Position numbers and translations under genes: made by a program. The notes beneath the pieces are model-generated. The model did not search any database, was not told where the DNA came from, and saw only the letters and a list, made by a program, of their open reading frames with translations. From Parablautia sp. Marseille-Q6255 (lineage in GTDB: Bacteria; Bacillota; Clostridia; Lachnospirales; Lachnospiraceae), in assembly GCF_951230155.1 (NCBI RefSeq), contig NZ_CATNVD010000001.1, forward strand, positions 186,001-250,000: DNA of 64,000 nucleotides, written 5' to 3'. Shown here one piece after another: positions 44,989 to 51,057 of this stretch; within the stretch, counting starts at the first letter, position 1; each line of letters opens with the position of its first letter.

Positions 44989-45930
44989 TTAAAACTCGAT
45001 CAGCCGCAGGTACCTTTCCAGCGCATCCTGCCAGGTTGGCAGCGGCTCAAATCCATTCTCTGCAAGCTTGCTCTTATCCAGCCTGGAATTAAACGGACGC
45101 TTCGCCTTAGACGCACCGTACTCCTGCGTCGTCACAGCCTCTACTGTAATACGATCCTCGCCGTACTCCTCATGTCCAAGCGCCCTCGCCTGCCGGAAGA
45201 TCTCTTTCGTAAAATCATACCAGCTGATATAGCCGCCCTCATTCGTCGCATGATAGTAACCATACTTGTCCGTCTCGATCATATCCACCAGCAGGCGCGC
45301 CAGATCATATGTGTACGTTGGCGTACCGATCTGATCACAGACCACACGCAGATGATCGTGCGTCTTTCCGAGATTCAGCATTGTCTTGATAAAATTCTTT
45401 CCATTTACGCCAAACACCCATGCAATGCGGACAATAAAGTACCGTTCCAGATTCTCTGCAACAGCCAGCTCCCCGTCAAGCTTCGTCTGCCCATACACAT
45501 TAAGCGGCTCATATTCCTTGCAGTCCGGCTCCCACGGCTGTGTCCCCAGCCCATTAAACACATAATCCGTAGACAGATAGACCATCTTGCAGCCAAGGCG
45601 CTTGCACACCAGAGCGATGTTCCTGGTTCCATCCACATTCACCCGGCGCACCAGCTCCACCTTATCATCATCCTCTGCCATATCAACGGCAGTCCACGCC
45701 GCGCAGTGCACCACTACGTCCGGAGCAGCCTTTGTAATAATCGCATCAACCGCCTCCCGATCCGTAATATCCATCTGCACATACGGCATCGTCACCACCG
45801 GCGTACCATCTGCAATCCCGCCGTAGACCGGAGCGATATCCGATCCAATCCCTTCGTATCCTCTTTTTGCCAGTTCATTCATCACGTCATGGCCAAGCTG
45901 GCCTGCTACGCCTGTTACAAGTACCTTCAT
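44989..45930 (-). CDS. RfbD-like dTDP-4-dehydrorhamnose reductase
   Basis: A 313-residue extended SDR protein: VLVTGVAGQLGHDVMNEL (NAD(P) loop), HCAAWTAVDMAEDD, YLSTDYVFNGLG, and YGQTKLDGELA with catalytic Tyr and Lys. This is the RmlD/RfbD group, the last step of dTDP-L-rhamnose synthesis. RmlA, RmlB and RmlC are not in the window, so rhamnose supply would depend on genes elsewhere. Its ATG overlaps the stop of the preceding nuclease-like gene by four bases. Confidence 0.9.
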   Translation of the reverse strand: MKVLVTGVAGQLGHDVMNELAKRGYEGIGSDIAPVYGGIADGTPVVTMPYVQMDITDREAVDAIITKAAPDVVVHCAAWTAVDMAEDDDKVELVRRVNVDGTRNIALVCKRLGCKMVYLSTDYVFNGLGTQPWEPDCKEYEPLNVYGQTKLDGELAVAENLERYFIVRIAWVFGVNGKNFIKTMLNLGKTHDHLRVVCDQIGTPTYTYDLARLLVDMIETDKYGYYHATNEGGYISWYDFTKEIFRQARALGHEEYGEDRITVEAVTTQEYGASKAKRPFNSRLDKSKLAENGFEPLPTWQDALERYLRLIEF

Positions 45931-46520
45931 ACGTTTTCACTCCTTGTTAAATATTCTTTTTCAAATTCATTTGGCGTGTATGTAAAAACATTCCGAAAAT
46001 AAATAGTTTTAAATTTTTCTAATCCAAAACGGATAAAAGGCTGCTTCGCCTTTTTAGAAAAATAATTACTGATAACTATCCTTGAAGGCGATGACTCGCA
46101 ACTCTCAACTACTTCATCTTCTCGTATATCTGAATTTCTCTGTTCATTATAAACCAGAATAAAATCCATATTTTCTCTACAGAATGAAACAGTCACATTC
46201 ATAATATCATTAAATATTAACAGACTATCATAAATCTTTTTACGAATACCATACGCCTCTTTCCCATTAACATGCCCATTCTTAAACTCAATAAAACAGT
46301 ATTCTCCGTCTATCGGCTCTAACAAAGCATCACTTGATGATGGTGCCTCTGTCAAAGACATTTCTTTGATATACGCATTTTTTACTGCATCAAAATTAAC
46401 CGCCACCATTTCCGAAGGAAGCATGTAGTTTCTCTCTTTCCTGCTGTCATCTAAAGAAATAGTTTTTAATGTTGCGTAATGTTCCTTAAAAACAGGTCCT
46501 GCGTCTAAATGTTTATTCAT
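45927..46520 (-). CDS. Small protein with PD-(D/E)XK-like motif, partner of the adjacent ATPase
   Basis: I do not recognise a named family. The 197-residue protein has, near residues 63-80, SDALLEPIDGEYCFIEFKNG: an Asp, a beta-strand and an E-x-K triad in the arrangement of PD-(D/E)XK nucleases, followed by a helix YGIRKKIYDSLLIF. A second strand block is MDFILVYNEQ. The C-terminus is rich in aromatic and basic residues. It overlaps the ATPase gene by eight bases and rfbD by four. ATPase-plus-nuclease pairs of this shape are frequent in anti-phage modules; that role is inferred. Confidence 0.6.
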   Translation of the reverse strand: MNKHLDAGPVFKEHYATLKTISLDDSRKERNYMLPSEMVAVNFDAVKNAYIKEMSLTEAPSSSDALLEPIDGEYCFIEFKNGHVNGKEAYGIRKKIYDSLLIFNDIMNVTVSFCRENMDFILVYNEQRNSDIREDEVVESCESSPSRIVISNYFSKKAKQPFIRFGLEKFKTIYFRNVFTYTPNEFEKEYLTRSENV

Positions 46521-47802
46521 CCTGATACTCCAGATTTTCTAATTCCTGTAAAGGCCTTGCCAGTTTTTTGTAAATAGCTTCTGTTGAGTTCGTTACATCA
46601 ACAGCTTCAGTCCTTCCACATGTTTCTTCCATAAGATAATATCTGCACCTGTCTGCGATTTTATATTTTTGAGAAAATACCTGTATGGCATTTAGAAAAT
46701 AAGGACTGTGCGTATTTAATAAAATGTTCGTCTGAAAATTTTTTTGCAATAGTACAATCAACTCTGCAAAACGAAGCTGCCATTCCGGATGCAAATGGAT
46801 TTCCGGCTCATCCATAACAATAACGCTCTGATCCTGGATTGAACCATTTTTTAATAATGTCTGTAAAATAATGAAGCTTTTAATACCGGTAGATAAATTA
46901 GCAATTTCTAATTCATCTTTTAAGCAGGGCGACTTATACCCATATGAACGTCGATGCCCTCGATCACTTTGACATAACTCCCCATCGCAAACACTACTCA
47001 TAGTCGAAAAAATCTGCTTCAGCTTATTCTCTGTAACTAATTCATCCAATGCACCAAAATCATTTCTTTGCTCAACGTTTCTAAGCTTTTTTAACAAATG
47101 GTTTCGATGATCATACTCTCCTTGAAAATCTGTAAGCCAAAGCCACTGCGAATTCAGCTCATCTAAAATAAACGGATCATCAATATAACATATTCCTTTT
47201 ACAATATTAAAAAAATTATTAATTTTGACATCCGAGTTATGAAGACTTTTGATTTCTATTTTGTTGTCCTGAATGTCTAATGCAACATAGGAATCCACGT
47301 CCTGATCATTTAGATAACCGATTTTCATACCAAACTCTGCATTAAAACGTTTTTTTACGATCATTTCCCGAATCTCTGCTTCATCAATTTTAAGTAAAGT
47401 CAGTATTCTGGAAGATAGGCCAGACAAATCTTCATCCGACAGAGCACTGCCTATTTGTTGTTTACTTTGAATATAAAATTCCTTCAGTTCATTTTGCAAG
47501 AGCTCTGGATTTTGCAAAAACTTCTTACGCTCAAAAATGCACCGCTGCGCAAATGGAGCACAGTTTATATCGGATGCCGCCCACTCTGCACGTTCATAAT
47601 AAAAAGTGTTCATACGTCGTAAAATACTATCCTGTCGTTCTAAAAACACCTGCTCTTGGATTTTATAAAAAGAGTCAAAAATAAAACAACATTTTCCCTA
47701 TCGTGCTTTTTCCAGTATTATTTTCTCCTGCAATTACAGTAATCCCCGTAATTCAATATCAGCGTTTTCTATTTTTCCGATGTTTTTTAACTTAAGCTTC
47801 AT
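46513..47802 (-). pseudogene. AAA/ABC-type (OLD/AAA_15-like) ATPase with two compensating frameshifts around Walker A
   Basis: The intact reading would be about 429 residues from the ATG at 47802. The start MKLKLKNIGKIENADIEL is in frame, then one base is missing at the C-run 47744-47747 and one is extra at the A-run 47677-47681. The segment between holds the Walker A GENNTGKST (47702-47728) in the -1 frame, and the zero frame has TAA and TAG there. Downstream the frame resumes and encodes SIQDQSVIVMDEPEIHLHPEW (Walker B), NLSTGIKSF (signature-like) and LNTHSPYFLNAIQV. An internal GTG at 47649 opens a 378-residue frame without a P-loop. Homopolymer sequencing error is possible. Promoter at 47834-47862. 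Confidence 0.8.
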
Positions 47803-47833
47803 TTCAAAACCTACCTTTACTATGCTCTTTCTT

Positions 47834-47862
47834 AGTATACCTAAATCACACAGCCTTGTCAA
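47834..47862 (-). promoter_or_regulatory. Sigma-A promoter of the ATPase-nuclease-rfbD unit
   Basis: Minus-strand TTGACA (plus 47857-47862), 17 bases, TATACT (plus 47834-47839), about 32 bases before the ATG at 47802. It means the module has its own promoter inside the polysaccharide locus. Confidence 0.8.
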
Positions 47863-47871
47863 TATTCATTC

Positions 47872-47896
47872 AAAATGTTGCATTTTTCAACATTTT
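47872..47896. repeat. Inverted repeat just upstream of the ATPase promoter
   Basis: AAAATGTTG (47872-47880) and CAACATTTT (47888-47896) are perfect 9-base arms with a 7-base spacer, ten bases upstream of the -35. It could be a repressor site or a weak terminator of the GT-C gene ending at 48011; no T-run follows on the minus strand. Confidence 0.6.
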
Positions 47897-48010
47897 ACCA
47901 AAAGCTGTAACCTTACGTATACAATCAACGAATGCAAAGCAGAAATAAATCCTTTTACATATCACATACTCCACCGAAATAGTAGTGACTTACATCCAAA
48001 TCAGCTTTCC

Positions 48011-49930
48011 TTATTTACTTCCTTCCAACCTTTTATTCTCTGGCAGATATTCTGTCATCTCATATCCCAGTTCCTCAAGGGCATTTTTTAATCCTTCCCC
48101 CTTCACATAGATAATATCATACTTTGCATTTTCGTAATCAAAATCAGCAAACAAGTAATAATCCCCCTCATACCAGGTCAAATCAATGTCATCATGATCG
48201 CTGATAATAAAATAATCAGTAAGCCCTAATTCCTCTTCCTGCTCTTTTCCAAACATCTGATAGCTCATGAGTTGGGACTGGTAAAACTGTATCTTGATAC
48301 CCGATAGCTTACCTTTTAGAACATATGGGTATTCCTGCGTGATCTCCTCCTCAAACTCCTGCATAAAATCAACAACTTCCGCAGTTGCATCCATCGTATA
48401 ATCATTTGTAGCCTTCCGTACCTTTACAAAATTCACCTGAATCAAAACAAGATCACTGACCAAAATTATACTAAGCAGAACATACGGCGCCCACTTCTTT
48501 TTGATACATGACAAAACCAAAGCGGTGAACATCAATCCAATTCCTAAAAGGCTGATTGCCAGTAAAGCTTCCCGGCCATATTTCTGCCCCCACATAATCT
48601 TTTCCGGAGCTTTTATCTTTTGAAAAGTATTCAAAATAATTGTATTATAAAGATAACCTTTATACTTAACCGCCAATGGCAAAATTTTCTGAAACCAAAC
48701 AAAAAAGACTGCCAGCGCACTCACACCGCAAAAAATCTTTCCTTTCCACCGGATCCAGTCCTTTCTGATACACAGAGCGTAAAGTGCGACAAAAATAATC
48801 ATCCCTGCTCCGCAGATCGCATATCGATCATAGAGCAATCGATCTACTCGTTTTTCCAATGTTCCAGTCGCAAATGATAAATATGTGCCTTTGAAAAACA
48901 ATGCTCCTACTGCATAATATCCCAAAAATACCAGCAAACAAAAAAGTACTGACACTTTTTCATTATCCGTCACATTTCCATCGTGATCCGCCACCAACTT
49001 CCAGACTACAATCCCCGAAACAACTATTCCAATCAGCACAAGTCCCTGTCCTGACACAAGCAAAGTATGTAGCCAGCTAATACAAAGCATAAACAGATCC
49101 TTCAGCATATCATATGAGAAAAAAGAAAAATATGCCTTCATATCCGTCGACTCCAAGGCATTTGCATTCAGCCCACTGATCGAATACAGCGCAGATTTAA
49201 ACAACTGACCCGTACAAGAATCCACCGCAAAACAAATTACTGATACAACCGCCAAGGTCATCCAGCTTATAGACTTTTTCTTTAAAAATATGCGTACTGC
49301 TATTGCTGTCAGCAAAAGCGCGATCAGCACCACGATTCCCCGTGTATGCGCTGTATAAGAATACACTGCAAAAAAAACTGCTGCTATCGTCCAAAGAACT
49401 CTTCGCATCTCCTTGTCCTGCTCCGCAGCCCGGATCGTCTCGAAAAAAGCCAATAAGACATACCATGGCAACACACTAAGCAGAAAATCTCCTCTGTAGT
49501 AAAAAACGTACAATGCAATAGACGGAACCAGACATACCGCCGCTCCCACTAATGCAGCAATTTTCTCAGACTTTACCGATAGATGGCGCTGACATATCAC
49601 ATAGACAACTGGTACAGTACTTACTTGTATCATACTCTGCAAAACCATACTGAGCCGATAGATCATATCCGGATCTTTCAGAAAAGCAAAAAACGGTATC
49701 GTCAATAATGCCTGTCCAAAACGATAATACAAACCGCCCAAAGAGGTAACCATCAAATGCCAGTCATAACCACCAAGCCATGCTGCATTCGCCATCGTCG
49801 TTGTCTCATCACTGATAACCGGAACTGTAAGCTGCCACGCCATAGCAAGTAATACAATTCCAACCAATACCGTAGTTATTATAATATACCTGTTTTGTTT
49901 TTTTCTCTGCTCTAATTTGTTCTCAATCAT
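48011..49930 (-). CDS. GT-C-like polytopic membrane protein (paralogue 1)
   Basis: The 639-residue protein has about a dozen membrane helices after a basic N-terminus. The first extracytoplasmic loop has VISDETTTMANAAWLGGYDW, with the Asp-Glu pair placed as in GT-C glycosyltransferases that use lipid-linked donors. A soluble C-terminal tail (about 500-639) includes LTDYFIISDHDDIDLTWYEG. It is clearly related to the protein at 51712-53475. A polysaccharide-modifying transferase is likely, but no acceptor can be named. Codon and base use are AT-rich. Confidence 0.7.
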   Translation of the reverse strand: MIENKLEQRKKQNRYIIITTVLVGIVLLAMAWQLTVPVISDETTTMANAAWLGGYDWHLMVTSLGGLYYRFGQALLTIPFFAFLKDPDMIYRLSMVLQSMIQVSTVPVVYVICQRHLSVKSEKIAALVGAAVCLVPSIALYVFYYRGDFLLSVLPWYVLLAFFETIRAAEQDKEMRRVLWTIAAVFFAVYSYTAHTRGIVVLIALLLTAIAVRIFLKKKSISWMTLAVVSVICFAVDSCTGQLFKSALYSISGLNANALESTDMKAYFSFFSYDMLKDLFMLCISWLHTLLVSGQGLVLIGIVVSGIVVWKLVADHDGNVTDNEKVSVLFCLLVFLGYYAVGALFFKGTYLSFATGTLEKRVDRLLYDRYAICGAGMIIFVALYALCIRKDWIRWKGKIFCGVSALAVFFVWFQKILPLAVKYKGYLYNTIILNTFQKIKAPEKIMWGQKYGREALLAISLLGIGLMFTALVLSCIKKKWAPYVLLSIILVSDLVLIQVNFVKVRKATNDYTMDATAEVVDFMQEFEEEITQEYPYVLKGKLSGIKIQFYQSQLMSYQMFGKEQEEELGLTDYFIISDHDDIDLTWYEGDYYLFADFDYENAKYDIIYVKGEGLKNALEELGYEMTEYLPENKRLEGSK

Positions 49931-49966
49931 CTATTCAACCATCATATTTCCATTACTTACTTTCCT

Positions 49967-50053
49967 TTAAGCGCTACAGTTCCTTATTGCACCTTCCCTT
50001 TTCTTGTCTATGGCAAGCTTCATCACATCCCGAAAACGCTGAACTGATGTATC
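49967..50053 (-). pseudogene. Possible gene remnant (29 codons ending in TAA)
   Basis: In the 240-base gap between two glycan genes the minus strand reads DTSVQRFRDVMKLAIDK and continues KREGAIRNCSA before a stop. It looks like a protein C-terminus, is open for about five more codons upstream, then meets TGA, and has no start. I could not identify a parent protein; chance is possible. Confidence 0.25.
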
Positions 50054-50169
50054 TTTTTTATTATTTTTCAATCATTTTACTGACTCTCACCTCTAAGGAA
50101 ACCCGTAATATTACACCCTGTGCTAATTGCAACTTATTGTATACTTTTTTGAATTTCATTTATAATTCT

Positions 50170-51057
50170 CTATTTTAACTGAGTTTCCATTTGTTGTACA
50201 TAGTACAACATAGAATCATCAAATATCTCATTATTATCATGAGCATAAAACTCTTCTATAGTCCGCTTTTCGTCTGATTTATCTGCTTTACCAAAGCTTC
50301 TACGCTCTACCCACTCTTCTTTTGATTTTGTAAAATAATGATTAATACGTATTTTATTAATCTGCTCAACAGGATGTGACCATCCCTTCACCTTATTTCC
50401 GTTTTCGTCTATAGAATAATAGCCGTATAAATATGTAGGAAAATGGGGCTGTTTATATTTATATACCTTTCTTGGATTAACAATTGTTTTTATACAGTTA
50501 TTTCCTTTTCCATCTTCCGCTGCTCTATACAAATAATTTTCTAAAACTCCCCCCTCTGGCCTATGCTCCAGTCCAGACGAACCAAACATACGCCAATTCA
50601 CTGCCAATCCCCCAACTGATTTTTTAGCTGGAACATTCAAAAGTTCGTCAATAATATCTTCTAATCTTTGAGCTTTGTTCATTACAAATAAAAACTCATC
50701 TGCATCTATAAAAGCCATATAACGGCAATCATTTCCATAATGTTTTAAAGCATAATTATATGCCGGAAGCTGCCTGTTCCTTCCCTCAAATGGAATAAAA
50801 TCCACTATTCCAGACTCAATATAGTGCACAAGTTCTGCTTTTGTACTATCAGTGCTTCCATTATCAAACAAATAAAAATGTGATACACCTATCATAGTGT
50901 GATAGGTTACCCACTCTTTAATGTAAGCGCCCTCATTTTTTATAATTGCAACAATTGCAATCTGATGCCTATACTCTCGAGTTTGAGTTCTAAATCGTTC
51001 CTTTATTGTTCTGTAAAGTCTCTCCGGTGCTTCCACTACATAACTAATTTTTTTCAT
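50170..51057 (-). CDS. GT92/GT2-like glycosyltransferase
   Basis: The 295-residue protein has VAIIKNEGAYIKEWVTYHTMIG (positions about 35-56), YLFDNGSTDSTKAELVHY and MAFIDADEFLFVM with the DxD motif, the pattern of GT92 (DUF23) transferases with a GT-A fold. SHPVEQINKIRINHYFTKS near the C-terminus also fits. It lies 12 bases from the acetyltransferase gene. It likely adds a sugar to a surface glycan. Confidence 0.85.
   Translation of the reverse strand: MKKISYVVEAPERLYRTIKERFRTQTREYRHQIAIVAIIKNEGAYIKEWVTYHTMIGVSHFYLFDNGSTDSTKAELVHYIESGIVDFIPFEGRNRQLPAYNYALKHYGNDCRYMAFIDADEFLFVMNKAQRLEDIIDELLNVPAKKSVGGLAVNWRMFGSSGLEHRPEGGVLENYLYRAAEDGKGNNCIKTIVNPRKVYKYKQPHFPTYLYGYYSIDENGNKVKGWSHPVEQINKIRINHYFTKSKEEWVERRSFGKADKSDEKRTIEEFYAHDNNEIFDDSMLYYVQQMETQLK

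What the first reader, a model, noticed from the sequence alone, without database searches (positions are those of the whole stretch)
47677..47747. Walker A of a defence-type ATPase is isolated by two compensating frameshifts
The gene is in frame from the ATG at 47802 to about 47747, lacks one base in a C-run, carries the whole P-loop (GENNTGKST) in the -1 frame, then regains frame through an extra base in an A-run at 47677-47681. Distance from ATG to downstream GTG is 153 bases, a multiple of three, so only the 70-base P-loop segment is affected. It could be a decayed gene, homopolymer-driven phase variation that switches the ATPase off, or two read errors.
Basis: seen in the sequence. Interest (0 to 1): 0.72.

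Follow-up and report, generated by a model that had tools for sequence, protein, structure and literature searches.

The report
Broken ATPase in unnamed nuclease module
In this gut-type bacterial genome the ATPase gene of a mobile, defence-like two-gene unit (ATPase plus a probable DNA-cutting partner) is broken in the assembly by two small length changes on either side of its ATP-binding loop; relatives carry the gene whole, so this is most likely a recently disabled copy rather than a switch.

Summary
On the minus strand the frame opened by ATG 47802 stops at 47736-47734; the P-loop segment (47746-47678) is open only in the -1 frame; the first frame resumes at 47676 and runs to 46513. One correction: the second site is not simply an extra base. 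None of 30 distinct homologous ATPases shows a gap there, i.e. 9 nt against 7 in the window, so the gene is 1 nt and then 2 nt short. It belongs to a conserved two-gene module: a PtuA/Rad50-like ATPase plus a partner of about 190 aa with a PD-(D/E)xK pattern. No Pfam, NCBIfam or PADLOC model matches the window's partner significantly. The pair also occurs beside a relaxase gene, and its site here is empty in two sister species. No genuine frameshift was found in about 70 kb of comparable DNA of the same contig (58% sensitivity), so two read errors are less likely, not excluded. The rest of the ATPase and the partner look conserved, so the lesion is young. Phase variation and programmed shifting have little support. 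Verdict: probably a recently inactivated copy of an uncharacterised, probably defensive module.

The parts
47834..47862 (-). sigma-70-like promoter TTGACA-17-TATACT upstream of the module
   Evidence: 11 of 12 consensus matches; the number of such sites in the region is no higher than in shuffles (8 found, mean 8.8), so only the quality of this site speaks for it
47748..47802 (-). N-terminal part of the ATPase in the frame of the ATG (MKLKLKNIGKIENADIEL)
   Evidence: resembles the N-terminus of homologues
47744..47747 (-). G4 run, site 1: one nt short against homologues; the ATG frame stops at 47736-47734 downstream
47678..47746 (-). P-loop segment in the -1 frame (GITVIAGENNTGKSTIGKMLFYF), Walker A at 47728-47702, ended by TGA 47677-47675
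47677..47683 (-). site 2: 7-nt stretch holding the T5 run; homologues have 9 nt here
   Evidence: no gap in 30 of 30 distinct homologues
46513..47676 (-). rest of the ATPase back in the ATG frame: signature LSTG, Walker B DEPEIHLHP, NTHSPYF; the GTG at 47649 opens the 378-aa ORF
   Evidence: (AAA_15 1.7e-12, AAA_21 1.6e-11); keeps 40 of 44 near-invariant columns
45927..46520 (-). partner, 197 aa, probable PD-(D/E)xK nuclease (D64, E78, K80), start overlapping the ATPase stop
   Evidence: D64, E78, F79, K80 invariant in 17 of 17 aligned; model pLDDT 83.6; weak PD-(D/E)xK fold matches
44989..45930 (-). rfbD/rmlD (dTDP-4-dehydrorhamnose reductase), start overlapping the partner's stop; neighbour of the module
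   Evidence: RmlD_sub_bind 7.2e-89
48011..49930 (-). 639-aa membrane-type protein (judged by eye), the other neighbour; its homologues in G025 and G037 are followed directly by rfbD (empty site)
   Evidence: no Pfam match

Best explanation
The ATPase gene at 47802-46513 is a recently inactivated copy of the first gene of a mobile two-gene module: an ABC/SMC-type (PtuA/Rad50-like) ATPase followed by a PD-(D/E)xK-like nuclease. Two real small length changes, 1 nt at the G4 run and net 2 nt around the T5 run, put the whole Walker A segment out of frame (shown in the assembly). Translation from the ATG ends after 22 codons, so no full-length ATP-binding protein is made by normal decoding (follows from the sequence). 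The second change returns the downstream frame, which keeps the reading path into the overlapping partner and rfbD starts open and may be why it was tolerated (inferred). In whole copies the ATPase presumably senses or gates and its partner cuts nucleic acid, as in Septu-like systems (inferred). Without the ATPase this module is probably silent (inferred).
For: Frame structure. Among loci L003-L050, 30 distinct homologues have an in-frame P-loop and no gap in 37 columns around Walker A (the collecting pattern required the in-frame P-loop). The loci without one were the window's own (L010, L015), three cut at contig ends (L011, L019, L025) and G151 (L030, L031), in which no ATPase was found. 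Decay recurs: G029 has a broken partner beside a whole ATPase, and G151 has only partner remnants. Assembly quality: 69,916 nt of the 447-kb contig is comparable with sister sequence; the one frameshift-like cluster lies in a T-box leader; the method found 92 of 158 planted single-base deletions. The rest of the protein keeps 40 of 44 near-invariant columns, within the range of whole homologues (0.75-1.00), so the lesion is young.
Against: No raw reads and no second strain could be examined. A young lesion with everything else conserved is also what two read errors in a working gene would look like, and both sites lie in homopolymer runs. The frameshift control would miss a closely spaced compensating pair like this one, and it covers only about 16% of the contig. 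Two frame-changing events within about 70 nt, with the frame restored, are not the commonest picture of a pseudogene.
Confidence: 0.58

Rival explanations
1. Assembly or read error: two homopolymer errors close together in a working gene.
For: Both sites are in runs (G4, T5); the rest of the module is conserved; a good promoter is present; relatives are whole.
Against: No genuine frameshift in 69,916 nt of comparable DNA of the contig at 58% sensitivity, i.e. an upper bound near 1 per 13.6 kb if errors are independent. Site 2 differs from relatives by two bases, not by the single extra base first proposed.
Confidence: 0.32
2. Homopolymer phase variation switches the ATPase on and off.
For: Run positions; one homologue, L014/L033, has a longer T7 run at site 2; many bacterial surface and restriction genes vary this way (recalled).
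Against: Runs of 4 and 5 are short and common (1091 G/C runs of 4 and 1823 A/T runs of 5 in 447 kb). Two sites would have to change together. In the 10 rows printed a long run is not conserved at either site.
Confidence: 0.03
3. Programmed double frameshift: ribosomes shift -1 before the P-loop and +1 at TTT-TGA-C after it, giving a full protein one residue shorter than relatives.
For: TTT TGA C at 47680-47674 resembles the +1 shift site of the release factor 2 gene (recalled).
Against: Site 1 (TTA CGG GGA) is no standard -1 slippery site (recalled rule). The 30 homologues compared need no shift (collected by an in-frame pattern). A one-residue deletion would fall inside the helix after Walker A (H32-46 of the L032 model). 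No SD-like stimulator was seen at the short spacing used by prfB (by eye, recalled rule).
Confidence: 0.02
4. A shortened Walker-A-less protein from the GTG at 47649 is made on purpose and works as a scaffold for the partner.
For: The 378-aa ORF is open and keeps 40 of 44 near-invariant columns; the partner keeps D64, E78 and K80.
Against: Near-invariant columns include ATP-site residues with no obvious use in a Walker-A-less protein. No such form was seen among the relatives examined.
Confidence: 0.05

Closest known systems
Septu (PtuA ATPase + PtuB)
   Same: ATPase and nuclease as a pair; the predicted fold of homologue L032's ATPase has E. coli PtuA as its best PDB row (8sux E 1.5e-9, TM-score by query 0.42; Rad50 and SMC heads follow closely).
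   Different: The partner is PD-(D/E)xK-like, not the HNH protein of Septu (HNH recalled). The PtuA equivalog score of the window's 378-aa ORF is 28.6 against a cut-off of 500.
PARIS (AriA + AriB)
   Same: 18 of 18 ATPases scanned match AriA profiles (best 7.6e-24).
   Different: AriB is a Toprim nuclease (abstract start of PMC12409363, seen in the listing); the partner shows no such match.
AbiL (AbiLi + AbiLii)
   Same: The window ORF matches AbiLi (3.1e-9); an AbiLi homologue (2.7e-82) lies about 1.6 kb from the module in L034.
   Different: That AbiLi homologue is a separate gene; no AbiLii match for the 17 partners scanned.
HEC-01 / HEC-02 candidate systems of PADLOC
   Same: Sub-threshold matches of single partners: HEC-01B 5.2e-4 for L032, HEC-02B 5.6e-3 for L043; 18 of 18 ATPases match HEC-02A.
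   Different: Only 1 of 17 partners matches each of these B models at E up to 0.1; the window's partner matches neither.

Membership tests
ABC/SMC-type AAA_15/AAA_21 ATPase | Walker A, signature and Walker B in one protein | tested here: not met
   In the window Walker A is out of frame; signature and Walker B are present. Among 30 distinct homologues collected by an in-frame P-loop, Walker B matched a strict pattern in the same ORF in 28 of 30, not in L024 and L026.
ABC/SMC-type AAA_15/AAA_21 ATPase | Pfam profile above the curated cut-off | tested here: met
   378-aa ORF: AAA_15 48.1 bits (cut-off 32.1), AAA_21 45.3 (27)
PD-(D/E)xK nuclease (partner) | conserved D ... (E/D)xK residues | tested here: met
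   D64, E78, K80 invariant in 17 of 17 aligned: the window plus 16 of the 19 named loci; L041, L045 and L047 were left out
PD-(D/E)xK nuclease (partner) | restriction-endonuclease fold | tested here: inconclusive
PD-(D/E)xK nuclease (partner) | cleaves nucleic acid | not testable with these tools
   needs a biochemical assay
Septu | PtuA equivalog match | tested here: not met
   28.6 bits against a cut-off of 500 for the window's 378-aa ORF; whole homologues were not scanned against NCBIfam
Septu | HNH partner (PtuB) | tested here: not met
   No Pfam, PADLOC or PDB sequence match of the partner to an HNH or PtuB protein; its conserved residues are D/E/K instead
PARIS | AriB (Toprim) partner | tested here: not met
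   No match of the partner
OLD family | C-terminal Toprim domain after the ATPase | tested here: not met
   The ORF ends about 95 aa after Walker B and no Toprim match was found in it
Anti-phage defence system | protects against phage | not tested
   Only circumstantial: patchy spread (18 of 397 family genomes), one copy beside a relaxase gene, AbiLi- or Mko-like neighbours in two loci
Phase-variable gene | long unstable tract with length variation | tested here: not met
   Tracts of 4 and 5 nt, ordinary in the contig; length variation between cells could not be tested

The most novel reading that the evidence does not exclude
The module is an undescribed mobile defence system, a Septu-like ABC ATPase paired with a new family of PD-(D/E)xK nuclease in place of HNH, that tends to settle in surface-polysaccharide gene clusters. 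The window shows a lineage that has just disabled the ATPase by changes confined to the ATP-binding loop while keeping the partner and the downstream operon readable.
Probability: 0.35. Interest if true: 0.5.

Novelty: new variant of a known kind. Interest (0 to 1): 0.3.

Why it matters
A disabled defence-type gene is ordinary. The module around it is less so: a conserved, mobile ATPase-nuclease pair of Lachnospiraceae and some other gut bacteria, whose second protein has no named family in the libraries searched (its only good profile hit, phrog_25533 in 3 of 4 members and not the window's, has no known function). It gives phage biologists a defined, testable pair, and the window supplies a natural loss-of-ATPase case. 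It also shows how a small frame-restoring pair of indels can remove a P-loop while the rest stays open, so that an ORF caller lists a plain 378-aa ATPase without showing that Walker A is missing.

Tried and rejected
Homologue searches with the 378-aa ORF in viral contigs and genome contigs found nothing. The partner alignment found 19 loci in genome contigs and none in viral contigs. An exact 49-base pattern from the P-loop region has no match in viral contigs, the module DNA none in plasmids, the partner protein none in plasmids. No second strain was found in these searches.

Frameshift controls: one search gave 1 candidate in G000 stretches and 2 in G025; one search gave 3 clusters in G000 and 5 in G025. 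The 3 in G000 were read in three frames and judged by eye to be antisense or non-coding shadows; the 5 in G025 were not inspected. The stricter version with longest ORFs only left one cluster in G000, in a T-box leader.

The sister species with the module at the same site (G033) has a contig that ends inside the partner, so its ATPase could not be read. Of the sister stretches searched (the 20 plus L088 and L089), only L088 and L140 hold the 639-aa neighbour's homologue, so the empty site rests on two species.

The partner of the window gave no Pfam match; one other member matched Lipoprotein_X at 0.002, judged chance. Three of four partners matched phrog_25533 (best 1.6e-7), the window's did not. 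No PDB sequence matched the partner profile at E<=1. In fold rows, families not listed are not excluded. Literature: seven answered searches, seen as capped listings with abstract starts, showed no paper on this pair; that is no proof of absence.

Considered and rejected: phase variation (short ordinary runs); programmed double frameshift (no standard site 1, not needed by relatives); chance resemblance (the P-loop stretch matches homologues over 21 residues).

Full report
What is in the sequence. On the minus strand an ATPase gene starts with ATG at 47802, about 30 nt after a good sigma-70-like promoter (47862-47834). The ATG frame runs through MKLKLKNIGKIENADIEL and stops at 47736-47734. The P-loop stretch GITVIAGENNTGKSTIGKMLF reads only in the -1 frame, which ends at a TGA (47677-47675). 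From 47676 the first frame matches homologues again and runs to the stop at 46513.

A correction. In an alignment of 30 distinct homologous ATPases there is no gap in the 37 columns around Walker A, so each has nine bases where the window has seven (codons of 10 loci are printed). Against relatives the gene is therefore one base short at the first site and two bases short at the second. An alternative reading, an extra base plus an ancestral one-residue loss, would put that loss inside the helix after the P-loop (residues 32-46 of the model of homologue L032), which is less likely.

Spread. The partner is found in 5 of 47 genomes of the genus (one of them, G033, only as a contig-end piece) and in 18 of 397 genomes sampled from the family (window included). 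In 19 of 19 named loci from the genome collection an ATPase with a P-loop lies immediately upstream on the same strand. By their titles 17 of the 19 are Firmicutes-type; the others are Bifidobacterium ramosum and a Muribaculaceae bin. One record labelled 'Bacteriophage sp.' (MT835532.1) carries the whole pair just after a ribbon-helix-helix gene and a MobL relaxase, so the module seems to travel.

Where it sits here. The module lies between a 639-aa membrane-type protein and rfbD (RmlD), and its partner's stop overlaps the rfbD start. In G025 and G037 homologues of the same two neighbours are directly adjacent, roughly 110-160 nt apart by alignment ends: an empty site. G033 has the partner (57.5% identical over 73 aa) directly upstream of an rfbD that is 87% identical, but its contig ends there. 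In 5 of 17 named loci whose flanking genes were partly scanned (30 proteins) a polysaccharide gene adjoins the module (L032 by a sub-threshold Wzz match, L035, L038, L042, L045). Glycosyltransferase-2 matches number 14-24 per genome in four genomes, so this may be more than chance, but no formal test was made.

Real lesion or error. Among loci L003-L050, those lacking an in-frame P-loop were the window's own (L010, L015), three cut by contig ends (L011, L019, L025) and G151 (L030, L031), which keeps only partner remnants; the pattern used to collect the 30 required an in-frame P-loop. Degenerate copies exist elsewhere (G029 partner, G151). The contig is not error-prone at the scale tested: in 69,916 nt comparable with sister sequence the only frameshift-like cluster lies in a T-box leader, with 92 of 158 planted deletions detected. 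Earlier, looser runs gave 3 clusters in this contig that were judged shadows by eye. If errors were independent this bounds them near 1 per 13.6 kb, so two within 70 bases would be unusual; clustered errors remain possible, and a compensating pair like this would escape the control. The remaining protein keeps 40 of 44 near-invariant columns and the partner 15 of 18, both within the range of the other aligned sequences (0.75-1.00 and 0.80-1.00). So the change is young if real.

Mechanism. Shown: the assembled gene cannot give a full-length P-loop ATPase by normal decoding. Inferred: the module is inactive, because related systems use ATP binding by the ATPase to control the nuclease (recalled for Septu- and PARIS-like systems). 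Inferred: return of the downstream frame may have been tolerated or favoured because it keeps translation running into the overlapping partner and rfbD starts. Phase variation and a programmed double shift were considered and found poorly supported.

Literature seen. PMC12988326: two passages on Hma-embedded candidates. PMC10568477: outline and abstract. All others only as search listings. Septu's HNH partner, the prfB shift site and slippery-site rules are recalled.

Verdict. Observation confirmed with one correction; most likely a recently inactivated copy of an unnamed ATPase plus PD-(D/E)xK-like module (0.58), read errors second (0.32).

Noticed in passing
L152 (MT835532.1 12293-20745), 2557-4483: A whole ATPase-partner pair in a record labelled 'Bacteriophage sp.' next to a MobL relaxase and an RHH gene; the record may be a mobilisable element rather than a phage.
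   Followed up: partly
L032, L035, L038, L042, L045 and window 44989-51057: The module repeatedly adjoins surface-polysaccharide genes (Wzz-like, GLF, UGPase, PMM, GT2, RmlD).
   Followed up: partly
L003 / L012 (G029:C31) and L030 / L031 (G151:C12): Other degenerate modules: a broken partner beside a whole ATPase in G029, and a lone partner remnant in G151.
   Followed up: partly
L027 (G400:C84): Family member with an unusual Walker A, GENNSAKST (A for the usual G).
   Followed up: no
L034, 6153-7403: AbiLi homologue (2.7e-82) about 1.6 kb from the module in Lacrimispora saccharolytica An817, a possible defence island.
   Followed up: no
L046 and L047: Nearly identical module in bins labelled Muribaculaceae and Blautia, so one label is probably wrong or the DNA was exchanged recently.
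   Followed up: no
L041 and L042: Same partner sequence and same ATPase start in two bins labelled Clostridia and Lachnospiraceae from rabbit-named samples.
   Followed up: no
L014 / L033 (Frisingicoccus caecimuris): Longer T7 run at the position of site 2 in a homologue whose frame is intact.
   Followed up: no
L060:825-1046 (G000:C1:140825-141046): T-box leader that mimics a frameshifted gene in translated comparisons.
   Followed up: yes
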